The position numbers were made by a program, and so were the translations under genes. Shown here one piece after another: positions 54,882 through 61,016 of a stretch of DNA of 64,000 bases. Under the pieces are notes generated by a model. That model saw nothing but the letters and a program-made list of their open reading frames with translations. It was not told the DNA's origin and made no database searches. How positions within the stretch are numbered: the stretch's first letter is position 1; each line of letters opens with the position of its first letter. The stretch is from Sphingobacteriales bacterium (GTDB taxonomy: Bacteria; Bacteroidota; Bacteroidia; Chitinophagales; Chitinophagaceae). The stretch covers positions 37,269 through 101,268 of the forward strand of contig JAAXIF010000031.1 in assembly GCA_012270485.1 (NCBI GenBank), in the 5' to 3' direction.

Positions 54882-54899
54882 TTAGAGTATTTTTTCTAA
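54882..54899. promoter_or_regulatory. 18-bp palindromic operator-like site, copy 1
   Basis: TTAGAGTATTTTTTCTAA. Confidence 0.6.
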
Positions 54900-54922
54900 T
54901 TTCAAGCAAATAAATTTTAGAA

Positions 54923-55282
54923 TTGTTTTCGAGATTTAAAATTGATTCTGAAGTATATGCTTCCATGTTGAAGTATATTGATGGATTTTCCTCTACTGAA
55001 GTAAATGGAATGAATGAGGATGCAACATTTATTAATGAAGATTTCTGGCTTCAAAATACCGCAGTAATAGAAAATGTAGAACGCAGGAATGGAGAATGGA
55101 ATATCTATCTCATTTTTGCCCACCACCTTATTCCCCTGAAATTCATAAAGCGCAAGATTGTTAATATGTCTTGCCCCAAAAAAGCATTCCTGACTGCACA
55201 TTATATGCGCAGACAGGCAGCAAAGGATCAAAGAGGAACTTTAGTATTAAATATGAAATTATTCCAAACTAATTTCAGTTAA
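54923..55282 (+). CDS. Hypothetical protein in operon with TetR 2
   Basis: 119 aa ORF (TTG start; internal ATG possible), ends 2 bp before tetR2. Confidence 0.65.
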   Translation: MFSRFKIDSEVYASMLKYIDGFSSTEVNGMNEDATFINEDFWLQNTAVIENVERRNGEWNIYLIFAHHLIPLKFIKRKIVNMSCPKKAFLTAHYMRRQAAKDQRGTLVLNMKLFQTNFS

Positions 55283-55284
55283 TT

Positions 55285-55905
55285 ATGAGTGGTACAAAAG
55301 AAAAAATAATAGCCGAAAGCAAAGACCTTTTTTTTGAAACTGGTATTGCTAACACTAGGCTACAACAAATTGCAGATGCCTGTAGCATCAGTGTTGGTAA
55401 CCTTGCCTATCATTTTAAAAACAAAGAGACAATAGTTGAGGCAGTGTATGACAATCTCTTTGAAGAATTGTCATCAATTTTATCTCAATATATTAACCAT
55501 AAGCATTTACAAGGGTTTGATATTTTGTTTTCCCGACTCTATTTCTTTTATGAACATAATCGGTTTACTTTCAATAATACTTGGGAAATTGAACGCAACC
55601 ATCCGGAGATTCAAAAAGAATGGCTCACTGTCAATAATAAAATTCTACAACAGTTAAAACGAAAAATTCAAGTTTGTCAGCAAGATGAAATCTTCAAACC
55701 CGAGCCTGTAAAGGGAAATTATGACTTACTAGCCCACAGTCTACTGATTCTGATCAACAGCTGGATTCCTCAACAAATACTACGACAAATGCCAGTTACA
55801 GAGAAATTATACAAAAATTGTTTATGGAATCTTCTTTATCCAAATTTTTCAAAAAAAGGGGCTTCCATTTATCATGAGATTATTGTCCCCGAAAGATTTA
55901 TATAA
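55285..55905 (+). CDS. TetR/AcrR-family regulator 2
   Basis: ESKDLFFETGIANTRLQQIADACSISVGNLAYHFKNKETIVEAVYDNL. Confidence 0.9.
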   Translation: MSGTKEKIIAESKDLFFETGIANTRLQQIADACSISVGNLAYHFKNKETIVEAVYDNLFEELSSILSQYINHKHLQGFDILFSRLYFFYEHNRFTFNNTWEIERNHPEIQKEWLTVNNKILQQLKRKIQVCQQDEIFKPEPVKGNYDLLAHSLLILINSWIPQQILRQMPVTEKLYKNCLWNLLYPNFSKKGASIYHEIIVPERFI

Positions 55906-55918
55906 AAAATTTGCTAGG

Positions 55919-55936
55919 TTAGAAAATTCTTTCTAG
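55919..55936. promoter_or_regulatory. 18-bp operator-like site, copy 2 (upstream of hupS)
   Basis: TTAGAAAATTCTTTCTAG. Confidence 0.65.
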
Positions 55937-55938
55937 AT

Positions 55939-55956
55939 TTAGAAATAATTTTCTAA
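55939..55956. promoter_or_regulatory. 18-bp operator-like site, copy 3 (upstream of hupS)
   Basis: TTAGAAATAATTTTCTAA, 20 bp centre-to-centre from copy 2. Confidence 0.7.
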
Positions 55957-55975
55957 ATCAACAGTATAAAAACGA

Positions 55976-58588: not shown

Positions 58589-58602
58589 ATTCATAAATAT
58601 CA

Positions 58603-58638
58603 AAAGAAAAAGCCTAACGAAAGTTGGGCTTTTTCTTT
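58603..58638 (+). terminator. Hairpin between hupL and the maturation protease
   Basis: aaagaaaaagcctaac-gaaa-gttgggctttttcttt. Confidence 0.8.
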
Positions 58639-58707
58639 GAGGTAACTAAATTTTTTTTAGCTTTTACCACGAATTTCTACTCTCCTTACATTAATATTGG
58701 AATCAGA

Positions 58708-59193
58708 ATGAGAAGTAAAGCAACAGCCATAATGGGCTTTGGGAATCCCTGTAGAAGTGATGACGCCATTGGTATTTATGTTATAGACCAGCTAAGGAAA
58801 TATGTCGGTGAAGAACCCAATATTTCAATATTAGATATGGGTACAAGTGCATTTGAAGTACTTTACCAATTGAAAGGTCATCAAAAAATAATTTTGGTGG
58901 ATGCAGTCGTAAATACAGGAGAGCAGATTGGGACCTTATACAAGGTGCCTGCACAAGAAGTGATGACGGCTCCTCAAGAAGACCCCATGGTTTTCTTGCA
59001 TAGTATAAAGTGGGATCAGGCATTGAGCTATGCAAAAAAAATTATGCAGAGCGATTACCCTGAAGATATACAAGTATACCTGATAGCAATTGAAAATACA
59101 AAATTAGATATGGAATTGAGTGACGAAGTAAAAAAAGCTGGAGATAAAGTAGTCCAAATCATTCTTAAAGAAGAACTCTCGTATATAGTTTAA
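58708..59193 (+). CDS. Hydrogenase maturation endopeptidase (HupD/HyaD/HupW-like)
   Basis: AIMGFGNPCRSDDAIGIYVIDQL...LDMGTSAFEVLYQL...ILVDAV. Confidence 0.88.
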   Translation: MRSKATAIMGFGNPCRSDDAIGIYVIDQLRKYVGEEPNISILDMGTSAFEVLYQLKGHQKIILVDAVVNTGEQIGTLYKVPAQEVMTAPQEDPMVFLHSIKWDQALSYAKKIMQSDYPEDIQVYLIAIENTKLDMELSDEVKKAGDKVVQIILKEELSYIV

Positions 59194-59214
59194 GCAATCT
59201 AAGAAAATTCAACA

Positions 59215-59526
59215 TTGATTACACTTACAAACAGGCACTTGATCATCAGCAACGAGATCGTTGAAAGTATTTTTGGGTTTTCTTCTCAGGTAAACTGGGT
59301 ATATTATGATGTCAAGAAAATATTGATGATTGCATCGCAGCATGATGATATTTTTAAAGGCCTGCATAAAACTTCTATGAGTATGCTGAAATTCAAAAAC
59401 AGTAAAGGTGACAGAAGTATATCGTTAGAAGAAATGCTGATTGACAACGAACTGGATAGTAGTGATAGGTCATTGGAATTTAATGCAGACGAAAAAATGA
59501 AAATACTGACAGTACATTTTTCATAA
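59215..59526 (+). CDS. Uncharacterised hydrogenase-locus protein (TTG start)
   Basis: 103 aa ORF tightly packed between protease and TPR gene. Confidence 0.65.
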   Translation: MITLTNRHLIISNEIVESIFGFSSQVNWVYYDVKKILMIASQHDDIFKGLHKTSMSMLKFKNSKGDRSISLEEMLIDNELDSSDRSLEFNADEKMKILTVHFS

Positions 59527-59529
59527 ATT

Positions 59530-61002
59530 ATGATTACAATATTTGTTTCGACAGAACTAAGAGAATCAGTAAAAAATCTGATTAATCAGGAGGATAGACT
59601 AAATGAATTAGTCAATTTATCCGTTGAAGACGCTGATGCAATTACAATTAAAGTTTCTTCTATAATTGAAGTGTTACCCGACTGGGAGAATCTGCAACCA
59701 CCAGTTCTATTTCCTAGTGTTTCATATAAGGATAAAATTTTACTAGGGATTATTTATGCCAAACTAAATAATTACGAGAAGGCCTATGAGATCTTAGAAG
59801 AATATCCGGATATATTACAAACTGTTGATATTTTAAACCGACTCCAAAATTCAGTACCATTTCAAGGATATGAATGGCAATTTGATTCCTTTGAAAATCT
59901 GCACAATAAAGCAATTGCAATCCACTATGGATCACAGAATGAAAGCGCTTCAAGTTTAGATATAGCAGAGGCATATGAATCTGCCATTAACTGTAGTAAA
60001 GAAAAATCAAGAAGACAATTCACTGCGTATCATCTTGCACAATTTTATCTTGATCAGAATATTGAAGCAAAAGCACTGAATATCATCAATACTATTTTAA
60101 ATGAATGTGATTCTCCTAAAATATGCATTGCATTTAAAGATATTCTTTGTAAAATATGGCAGAAAAATTTAGTAGTACCTTATGATGTTAAAGTACTAGG
60201 AGAATTGAAGACTACATTATGGGAATGCCTAGAATATTATGAGTTGAATGGTAGGATGACAGAAGCTGCAATGATTTTGATGGATGCTACTTATATTGCT
60301 ACAATTAGCGAAAGTTTTAGTGAAGCGCTGGGTTATATCAGTAGGGCAATTACCATAATTGAAAAGGAACAACTTCTTGAGCTTCTAGCCCAAGCACAAT
60401 TTTCAAAGGGAAATCTACTCCAAACATGGGCACAAAATGGGAATCCTCAGTTCTATCGGGCAGCAGTTCAATCATATCAGGCAGCATTGAAGACATTTAC
60501 CAAAGAGGATTATCCAGATATTTTTGCTGAAATTCATCATCAATTAGGGAAAGTTTATGCAGAAATTCCAGACGAGGTAAAGAAGAAAGGGGTATGGGCT
60601 GCTGTTTCAGTTTCATCTTTCAACGAGGCACTCAATTATTATAATAAGATTGATTTTCCTTATCAGTTTGCAATGATTTGTAATAGTATGGGGAATGCCT
60701 ATACCAAATATCCGGCTGCTTTGCATACAGACAACTTCGATAAGGCACTTGCCTGGTATAGGGAAGCATTGGATATTAGAACCACAGCAACATATCCCTT
60801 AGAACGTGTTTTAACGCTCTGTAACTATTTAGAAGCTAGCTGGTTTGTTGGAAATAAGGAGGAATTTGACGAAGATCGATTCAACGAAATGATGAATGTA
60901 GCTAATGAAATCATCCTGCTTAGTAATGATGAGAAGATTCTCAATAGCGCTAAGAATGATATTCAAAGACTAGAAGCGCTCAAGGCAGAAACTCAAAATT
61001 AG
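59530..61002 (+). CDS. TPR-repeat protein of the hydrogenase locus
   Basis: 490 aa helical repeats; e.g. ALAQAQFSKGNLLQTWAQ-type and MICNSMGNAYTKYPAALHTDNFDKALAWYREALDIR. Confidence 0.85.
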   Translation: MITIFVSTELRESVKNLINQEDRLNELVNLSVEDADAITIKVSSIIEVLPDWENLQPPVLFPSVSYKDKILLGIIYAKLNNYEKAYEILEEYPDILQTVDILNRLQNSVPFQGYEWQFDSFENLHNKAIAIHYGSQNESASSLDIAEAYESAINCSKEKSRRQFTAYHLAQFYLDQNIEAKALNIINTILNECDSPKICIAFKDILCKIWQKNLVVPYDVKVLGELKTTLWECLEYYELNGRMTEAAMILMDATYIATISESFSEALGYISRAITIIEKEQLLELLAQAQFSKGNLLQTWAQNGNPQFYRAAVQSYQAALKTFTKEDYPDIFAEIHHQLGKVYAEIPDEVKKKGVWAAVSVSSFNEALNYYNKIDFPYQFAMICNSMGNAYTKYPAALHTDNFDKALAWYREALDIRTTATYPLERVLTLCNYLEASWFVGNKEEFDEDRFNEMMNVANEIILLSNDEKILNSAKNDIQRLEALKAETQN

Positions 61003-61016
61003 AAAATATTTTCTAA
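60999..61016. promoter_or_regulatory. 18-bp perfect palindrome, copy 4 (upstream of hypA, overlaps TPR stop codon)
   Basis: TTAGAAAATATTTTCTAA. Confidence 0.75.

What the first reader, a model, noticed from the sequence alone, without database searches (positions are those of the whole stretch)
54882..61016. Four copies of an 18-bp palindrome (TTAGAAAATATTTTCTAA) mark three intergenic sites of the hydrogenase island
Sites: 54882 TTAGAGTATTTTTTCTAA (before orf-tetR2), 55919 TTAGAAAATTCTTTCTAG and 55939 TTAGAAATAATTTTCTAA (tandem, 20 bp apart, i.e. about two helical turns on one face, before hupS), and 60999 TTAGAAAATATTTTCTAA (perfect, before hypA). The sites precede exactly the probable transcription units. 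Two TetR-family genes lie immediately upstream. Inference: a dedicated TetR operator controlling orf-tetR2 (autoregulation), hupSL and hyp expression. I am not aware of a described TetR-controlled group 2a hydrogenase regulon in Bacteroidota.
Basis: partly seen in the sequence, partly recalled or inferred. Interest (0 to 1): 0.85.

Follow-up and report, generated by a model that had tools for sequence, protein, structure and literature searches.

The report
DNA switches controlling an air-hydrogen enzyme
Four copies of one short palindrome sit in front of a bacterium's hydrogen-scavenging enzyme genes, and the same palindrome guards the same genes across many families of the phylum Bacteroidota, almost certainly as the landing site of two neighbouring TetR-type switch proteins, giving a direct, testable answer to how such hydrogenases are turned on and off.

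Summary
Observation confirmed; the TetR inference is well supported by comparative genomics, though no binding was tested. The four sites are at the stated coordinates. In the 4.04-Mb genome, four of 15 matches with up to 3 mismatches lie in this 6-kb stretch, including the only ones with 0-2 mismatches. Among 80 orthologous hydrogenase loci, the exact form TTAGAAAnnnnTTTCTAA occurs 100 times, 96 of them just upstream of cassette genes (hupS 63, hypA 13, hypB 12, regulators 7). Background in 394 Bacteroidota genomes without the hydrogenase is about 0.06 per genome. Loci with the cassette's TetRs have the site (61 of 62, the last at 12/14); seven without them lack it. The two TetRs form two clades that share their DNA-reading helix.

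New here: sites hold fixed positions relative to the Bacteroidota -7 box. They overlap -7 at the regulators' own promoter, sit on -33 at hupS, and lie near -60 at hyp and as the upstream hupS copy. This implies autorepression; the sign at hup/hyp (activation or repression) is unsettled. HupL is a Huc (group 2a) relative; the direct regulator of mycobacterial huc was published in 2026 as still unidentified.

The parts
54257..54868 (+). tetR1: TetR-family regulator, 203 aa (TTG start)
   Evidence: Pfam TetR_N 2e-9 and PF13972 1e-8; forms its own clade across loci
54882..54899 (.). operator site 1, TTAGAGTATTTTTTCTAA, before orf119-tetR2
   Evidence: in orthologous loci the site before orf119 overlaps a -7 box TAnnTTTG in 9 of 15 cases
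54923..55282 (+). orf119: small conserved protein, no Pfam or NCBIfam family, co-resident with the TetR genes
   Evidence: in 399 Bacteroidota genomes found only in hupL+ ones; AlphaFold2 model pLDDT 83, alpha-beta-beta-beta-alpha, no structural match with E <= 0.001
55285..55905 (+). tetR2: TetR-family regulator, 206 aa
   Evidence: Pfam TetR_N 6e-10 and PF13972 5e-7; second clade; shares the recognition helix (SVGNLAYHFKNK here) with tetR1
55919..55936 (.). operator site 2 (distal of tandem pair), TTAGAAAATTCTTTCTAG
55939..55956 (.). operator site 3 (proximal of tandem pair), TTAGAAATAATTTTCTAA
55982..56962 (+). hupS: [NiFe]-hydrogenase small subunit
   Evidence: Pfam Oxidored_q6 and NiFe_hyd_SSU_C
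56990..58588 (+). hupL: [NiFe]-hydrogenase large subunit, closest solved relative Mycobacterium smegmatis Huc
   Evidence: PDB 7uus/7utd E about 1e-201, next group E 2e-62
58708..59193 (+). hupD: hydrogenase maturation protease
   Evidence: Pfam HycI, NCBIfam TIGR00072
59215..59526 (+). orf103: conserved cassette gene, unknown
   Evidence: conserved position in most orthologous loci
59530..61002 (+). TPR-like protein of the hydrogenase cassette
60999..61016 (.). operator site 4, perfect palindrome, before hypA; overlaps the TPR stop codon
   Evidence: orthologous hypA sites lie 55-57 bp upstream of the -7 box
61089..61433 (+). hypA, first gene of the maturation operon (hypA-hypB-hypF, then hypC, hypD, hypE beyond the window)
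61439..62152 (+). hypB
62159..64000 (+). hypF, continues beyond the window

Best explanation
The palindrome TTAGAAAnnnnTTTCTAA is the dedicated operator of the TetR-family regulators encoded beside it (tetR1, tetR2, with orf119 between them). A TetR dimer, and at tandem sites two dimers, binds it and directly controls a small regulon: the group 2a (Huc-type) uptake hydrogenase genes hupSL and downstream cassette genes, the hyp maturation operon, and in some species the regulator genes themselves. SHOWN by computation: the sites, their near-confinement to this regulon, their phylum-wide conservation, their co-occurrence with the TetRs, and their fixed distance to the -7 promoter box. INFERRED: binding by TetR1 and/or TetR2; autorepression of orf119-tetR2, where the operator overlaps -7; and, least certain (about 50%), that at hup and hyp promoters the bound TetR contacts RNA polymerase as an activator, because operators there sit at fixed places near -37 and -59 to -61, and at hypA usually only near -59. 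The inducing signal is unknown.
For: Four sites against 0.21 expected in the window; the only 0-2 mismatch sites of the genome. In 80 orthologous loci, 196 sites with >=12/14 arm matches against 18.6 in shuffles; 100 exact sites, 96 upstream of cassette genes. In ten named TetR+ genomes, 20 of 22 exact sites precede hup or hyp genes, while two TetR-less hup genomes have none. Exact sites number 22 in 394 hupL-less Bacteroidota genomes, against 2, 2 and 3 in the three hupL+ genomes of that sample that carry the site. TetR and motif co-occur 61 of 62 against 0 of 7, Fisher 7e-9. TetR1 and TetR2 of one locus share on average 54% identity in the DNA-binding domain and 24% elsewhere. A perfect TAnnTTTG begins 32-34 bp after the start of the proximal hupS site in 34 of 62 loci, largest null value 5; distal hupS sites at 56-58; hypA 11 of 14 at 55-57 (>=5/6 match), largest null 6; orf119 9 of 15 at 15, largest null 5. 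Outside the operator and the -7 box the promoters are poorly conserved.
Against: No binding or expression data. The co-occurrence rests on about six changes on the hupL tree, of which only two lie on well-supported branches. Most TetR-family proteins are repressors, and hupS sites on -33 fit plain repression as well. In the window's own clade the hupS and hypA -7 boxes cannot be identified, so the promoter geometry is carried over from relatives. No orf119 promoter site was found in many loci, so autoregulation is not universal.
Confidence: 0.78

Rival explanations
1. Same TetR operators, but the TetRs are plain repressors everywhere: they block the -33 and/or -7 region at hupS and orf119 and act at hyp promoters by cooperative binding or by blocking upstream promoter contacts; a ligand or Orf119 relieves them.
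For: Most TetR-family regulators are repressors (general knowledge). Operators overlap -7 before orf119 (9 of 15) and, in two Saprospiraceae loci, before hupS (L122, L124); proximal hupS sites lie on -33.
Against: hypA sites usually stand alone 55-57 bp upstream of the -7 start (about -59), outside the core promoter, with no second operator on -33 above chance; neither hup nor hyp promoters show a good TTTG at -33.
Confidence: 0.42
2. The palindrome is the site of an unlinked transcription factor; the TetRs are linked for another reason.
For: Binding was not tested; an 18-bp palindrome fits many dimeric regulators.
Against: Sites and cassette TetRs are gained or lost together, including two genomes where the TetR genes lie outside the fetched locus; exact sites are nearly confined to hydrogenase loci of TetR+ genomes; TetR1 and TetR2 share the recognition helix.
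Confidence: 0.08
3. The palindromes act in RNA (terminator or attenuator hairpins).
For: Inverted repeats; site 60999 lies at the end of the TPR gene.
Against: At hupS, the sites lie upstream of the -7 box and so would not be transcribed from that promoter; the stem is A+T-rich; conservation is in the sequence of both arms, with the G and C positions nearly invariant.
Confidence: 0.02
4. Chance in A+T-rich intergenic DNA.
For: The loose pattern is at background.
Against: The strict pattern is far above background in the window, genome and 80 loci.
Confidence: 0.001

Closest known systems
Local TetR/AcrR-family regulators with a palindromic operator (such as AcrR, MtrR, QacR, TetR)
   Same: TetR_N DNA-binding domain plus PF13972 C-terminal domain; inverted-repeat site near the promoter of the neighbouring operon and of the regulator
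   Different: Two paralogous TetR genes with one shared recognition helix flank a hydrogenase-specific small gene; the target is a hydrogenase plus its maturation operon; operators hold discrete positions near -18.5, -37 and -60 relative to the predicted start
Regulation of Huc (group 2a) in Mycobacterium smegmatis (PMC13098282, PMC13289019)
   Same: Related enzyme of the same group
   Different: There GylR acts indirectly, GylR, Crp1 and Crp2 do not bind the huc promoter, and the direct factor is unidentified; here a direct operator and candidate regulators are encoded in the cassette
HoxBC/HoxJ/HoxA and HupUV/HupT/HupR hydrogen-sensing systems of Proteobacteria
   Same: Local control of uptake hydrogenase genes (general knowledge; H2-sensing regulatory hydrogenase with a two-component system described in PMC13289019)
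   Different: No regulatory hydrogenase or two-component pair was noticed in the cassette; one-component TetR candidates instead
TetR-family regulators that both activate and repress (LuxR/HapR/SmcR type of Vibrio; general knowledge)
   Same: Same protein superfamily; position-dependent sign is the proposed behaviour
   Different: No specific relationship; a weak match to HapR (PDB 8zf2, E 1e-6) reflects the common fold

Membership tests
TetR/AcrR family of transcriptional regulators (tetR1, tetR2) | N-terminal TetR_N helix-turn-helix domain | tested here: met
   PF00440 E 2.2e-9 and 5.8e-10, above gathering score
TetR/AcrR family of transcriptional regulators (tetR1, tetR2) | C-terminal ligand/dimer domain | tested here: met
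   PF13972 E 1.4e-8 and 5e-7, above gathering score
TetR/AcrR family of transcriptional regulators (tetR1, tetR2) | Binds an inverted-repeat operator near its own or a neighbouring promoter | tested here: inconclusive
   Candidate operator conserved, co-occurring and promoter-locked; binding not testable here
TetR/AcrR family of transcriptional regulators (tetR1, tetR2) | Ligand-controlled DNA release | not testable with these tools
   Ligand unknown; nearest solved relatives 3nnr and 3rh2 are named only as TetR-like regulators
Group 2a [NiFe]-hydrogenase (Huc/HupSL) | Large subunit much closer to Huc than to other groups | tested here: met
   7utd/7uus E about 1e-201 over residues 6-517, next best E 2e-62
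Group 2a [NiFe]-hydrogenase (Huc/HupSL) | Small subunit without the N-terminal Tat signal seen in group 1 | not tested
   HupS appears to begin directly at MANVLWLQGGACSG; no signal-peptide predictor was run
Group 2a [NiFe]-hydrogenase (Huc/HupSL) | High-affinity oxidation of atmospheric H2 | not testable with these tools
   H2 oxidation not reported for these Bacteroidota lineages in PMC7784904
Sigma-ABfr type Bacteroidota promoter at hupS | -7 box TAnnTTTG | tested here: met
   Perfect box at a fixed distance in 34 of 62 orthologous loci; not identifiable in the window's own clade. Consensus and position -12 to -5 from PMC9723704 and PMC7366714
Sigma-ABfr type Bacteroidota promoter at hupS | -33 box TTTG | tested here: not met
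   The position is taken by the operator's TTTC; no conserved G. The -33 box was also not found in Flavobacterium johnsoniae (PMC7366714)

The most novel reading that the evidence does not exclude
The tetR1-orf119-tetR2 triad is a new kind of one-component hydrogenase switch: two TetR paralogues with one shared DNA specificity, possibly as heterodimers, and a hydrogenase-dedicated small protein act together, activating hup and hyp promoters from about -60 and -37 while repressing their own promoter from a site on the -7 box; Orf119 carries or transmits the signal.
Probability: 0.25. Interest if true: 0.8.

Novelty: new variant of a known kind. Interest (0 to 1): 0.66.

Why it matters
Huc-type group 2a hydrogenases let aerobic bacteria live on trace atmospheric hydrogen. 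A 2026 study and commentary state that the direct transcription factors of mycobacterial huc are unidentified (PMC13098282, PMC13289019), and the 2020 survey that mapped group 2a hydrogenases, including 34 Bacteroidota genomes, mentions no TetR regulator in its main text (PMC7784904). Here a direct regulator pair, its operator, its promoter geometry and its regulon are predicted for named, cultivated strains (Runella, Emticicia, Spirosoma, Chitinophaga costaii), so the question can be tested with a gel shift and a reporter. The motif also gives a quick way to find further members of the regulon, such as metal-uptake genes.

Tried and rejected
Loose patterns (TTAGAN8TCTAA with 1 mismatch; TTAGAAAN4TTTCTAA with 2 mismatches) are at background and were dropped. 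The window match at 52329 (TTAGAATCATATTTCTAA) is such a loose hit at the start of a minus-strand ORF and was judged chance. Exact sites in hupL-less genomes (such as L153-L155) have no hydrogenase context and look like background. Structure prediction of orf119 gave a fair model (pLDDT 83) but no Foldseek match better than E 0.14; several weak matches are double-stranded-RNA-binding domains of the same alpha-beta-beta-beta-alpha order, not taken as homology. Solved-structure and Pfam searches with the orf119 alignment found nothing credible. The TetR profile search gave only generic TetR structures, no ligand hint. A strict 'two helical turns' rule was rejected: tandem spacing mostly varies from 19 to 26 bp.
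Full report
1. The observation. The four 18-mers are present exactly where reported. With up to 3 mismatches from TTAGAAAATATTTTCTAA the window holds four matches against 0.21 expected, and no shuffle reached four. The genome (4.04 Mb) holds 15 places at that stringency, four of them in this 6.1-kb stretch, and the only places with 0 or 2 mismatches are here (Poisson P about 3e-9). 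The looser pattern proposed for checking is useless: TTAGAN8TCTAA with 1 mismatch is at chance, and TTAGAAAN4TTTCTAA with 2 mismatches is below its reversed control, 67 against 87.

2. Surroundings. Gene order is tetR1 (54257-54868), orf119 (54923-55282), tetR2 (55285-55905), hupS, hupL, hupD, orf103, a TPR-like gene, hypA, hypB, hypF. hypC, hypD and hypE, an NHL-repeat-like protein and a likely nickel permease follow outside the window (all five named from sequence only). HupL is a Huc relative: PDB 7utd/7uus at E about 1e-201, the next group at 2e-62. Site 1 lies between tetR1 and orf119, sites 2 and 3 between tetR2 and hupS, site 4 overlaps the TPR stop codon and precedes hypA.

3. Conservation. 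A scan of GTDB genomes gave 80 hupL loci, nearly all from Bacteroidota, 77% identical or more. The cassette is conserved. Across 1.38 Mb of these loci there are 196 sites with at least 12 of 14 arm positions, against 18.6 in shuffles. Of 100 exact sites, 63 precede hupS, 13 hypA, 12 hypB, 4 orf119, 3 a tetR, 1 hupD, and 4 lie elsewhere. Of those four, L091 has a pair before a hypC...hypD-hypE operon, L073 one before hypD, L082 one before hypE, and L085 one just after hypA at the end of its contig. In ten named TetR+ genomes 20 of 22 exact sites lie at hup or hyp genes; the other two precede a TonB-dependent receptor (Emticicia) and gltX (Flavilitoribacter, probably chance). In a sample of 399 Bacteroidota genomes, 394 without hupL have 22 exact sites together (0.06 per genome), while three of the five hupL+ genomes have 2, 2 and 3. 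The other two hupL+ genomes lack both the sites and close TetRs.

4. The regulator. All 62 loci with a cassette TetR (in the locus, or elsewhere in the genome for L082 and L095) and enough upstream sequence have the site before hupS: 61 at 13 or 14 of 14, and L067 at 12 of 14 with a weaker tandem partner. The seven loci whose genome has no close TetR have none (Fisher 7e-9). On the hupL tree this needs six changes, only two on well-supported branches, so phylogenetic independence is limited. TetR1 and TetR2 form two clades. Proteins of one locus are on average 54% identical in the DNA-binding domain and 24% elsewhere, and both keep S-x-G-N/H-x-x-Y-H at the recognition helix, which suggests one shared operator. 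Loci with only TetR1 have one hupS site (5 of 5), while loci with both have two or more in 38 of 41 (both against single, Fisher 3e-4, not corrected for relatedness). In the 399-genome sample orf119 relatives occur only in hupL+ genomes (4 genomes). Orf119 has no known family, no solved relative and no clear fold match.

5. Promoter geometry. The Bacteroidota sigma factor uses a -7 box TAnnTTTG at -12 to -5 (PMC9723704, PMC7366714). A perfect box starts 32-34 bp after the start of the proximal hupS site in 34 of 62 loci; the largest value for any 5-bp bin in 2000 shuffles was 5. Distal hupS sites are mostly at 56-58 (27 sites). hypA sites are at 55-57 (11 of 14 with at least 5/6 matches; largest null value 6). 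hypB sites cluster at 54-56 and 33. Sites before orf119 are at 15 (9 of 15), so the operator's last TAA provides the TA of the -7 box. In coordinates relative to the predicted start, operator centres are near -18.5 (regulator), -36.5 (hupS) and -58 to -61 (hyp, distal hupS). hypA promoters have no second operator on -33 above chance. In the window's own clade these -7 boxes cannot be recognised, so the numbers there are carried over from relatives.

6. Mechanism. Overlap with -7 at the regulators' own promoter indicates autorepression. At hupS the proximal operator replaces the -33 region, and at hypA the operator stands alone near -59. The latter is where class I activators sit and is hard to explain by simple blocking, so I lean slightly to activation at hup and hyp, but plain repression remains almost as likely. 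Binding, sign and signal are all untested.

7. Comparison with the known. The module works like a local TetR regulator with a palindromic operator and, by domain content, its proteins are TetR-family members; ligand control and binding were not testable. What differs is the paired TetRs, the hydrogenase-dedicated small protein, the fixed multi-position operators and the target. In mycobacteria the direct huc regulator is unknown: GylR, Crp1 and Crp2 do not bind the promoter (PMC13098282; PMC13289019). The survey of group 2a hydrogenases shows Bacteroidota as a separate radiation and its main text does not mention TetR (PMC7784904). Searches for TetR with uptake hydrogenases, or for the motif in Bacteroidetes papers, found nothing relevant. 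The library holds only open-licence papers, so absence is not proof.

8. Verdict. Real, conserved and well explained as the operator of the cassette's TetR pair; a new regulon of a known regulator family with an unusual arrangement. Confidence that it is a TetR operator is about 0.85-0.9; activation against repression at hup/hyp is about even.

Noticed in passing
window 53681 onward; L046 6693-21596: From 53681 the window is 99.98-99.99% identical to Sediminibacterium sp. Gen4 for at least 14.9 kb, while the sequence left of 53681 is unrelated; the M16 peptidase-like ORF (52417-53709) is cut near this edge. The hydrogenase island with its regulators seems to have moved recently as a unit between two Sediminibacterium-like genomes (an assembly join is the alternative). 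No tRNA was found in L046; the edge holds a repeated GGGGTACAC.
   Followed up: partly
L058, L062, L063, L065, L112, L118, L123, L189 (G108): Several loci carry two hupS genes in a row between tetR2 and hupL, the first 67-80% identical to the window's hupS; the operators sit before the second one.
   Followed up: no
for example L100 12508-12867, L107 12524-12838, L114 12639-12956: A second orf119-like gene often lies between orf103 and the TPR gene, also in loci that lack the TetR pair, so the orf119 family is tied to the hydrogenase and not only to the regulators. The window has no such second copy.
   Followed up: partly
L087, L088, L093, L094, L104 around 17212-17254; L102 at 12840: In six related loci (Cyclobacteriaceae and near relatives) a weaker site (TTAGTAAAAATTTTCTAG type) lies before a FecB/BtuF-like binding protein with permease and ATPase (context read in L087, L094, L104), possibly a nickel or cobalt importer added to the regulon.
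   Followed up: partly
L201 (G155:C1:531500-536500), site at 2355: In Emticicia aquatilis an exact site away from the hup locus precedes a TonB-dependent receptor.
   Followed up: partly
upstream of hupS in L046-L050, L083: A conserved CGATTG-like stretch lies a few bases before the hupS start codon in the window's clade, at varying distance from the operators; perhaps a translation signal.
   Followed up: no
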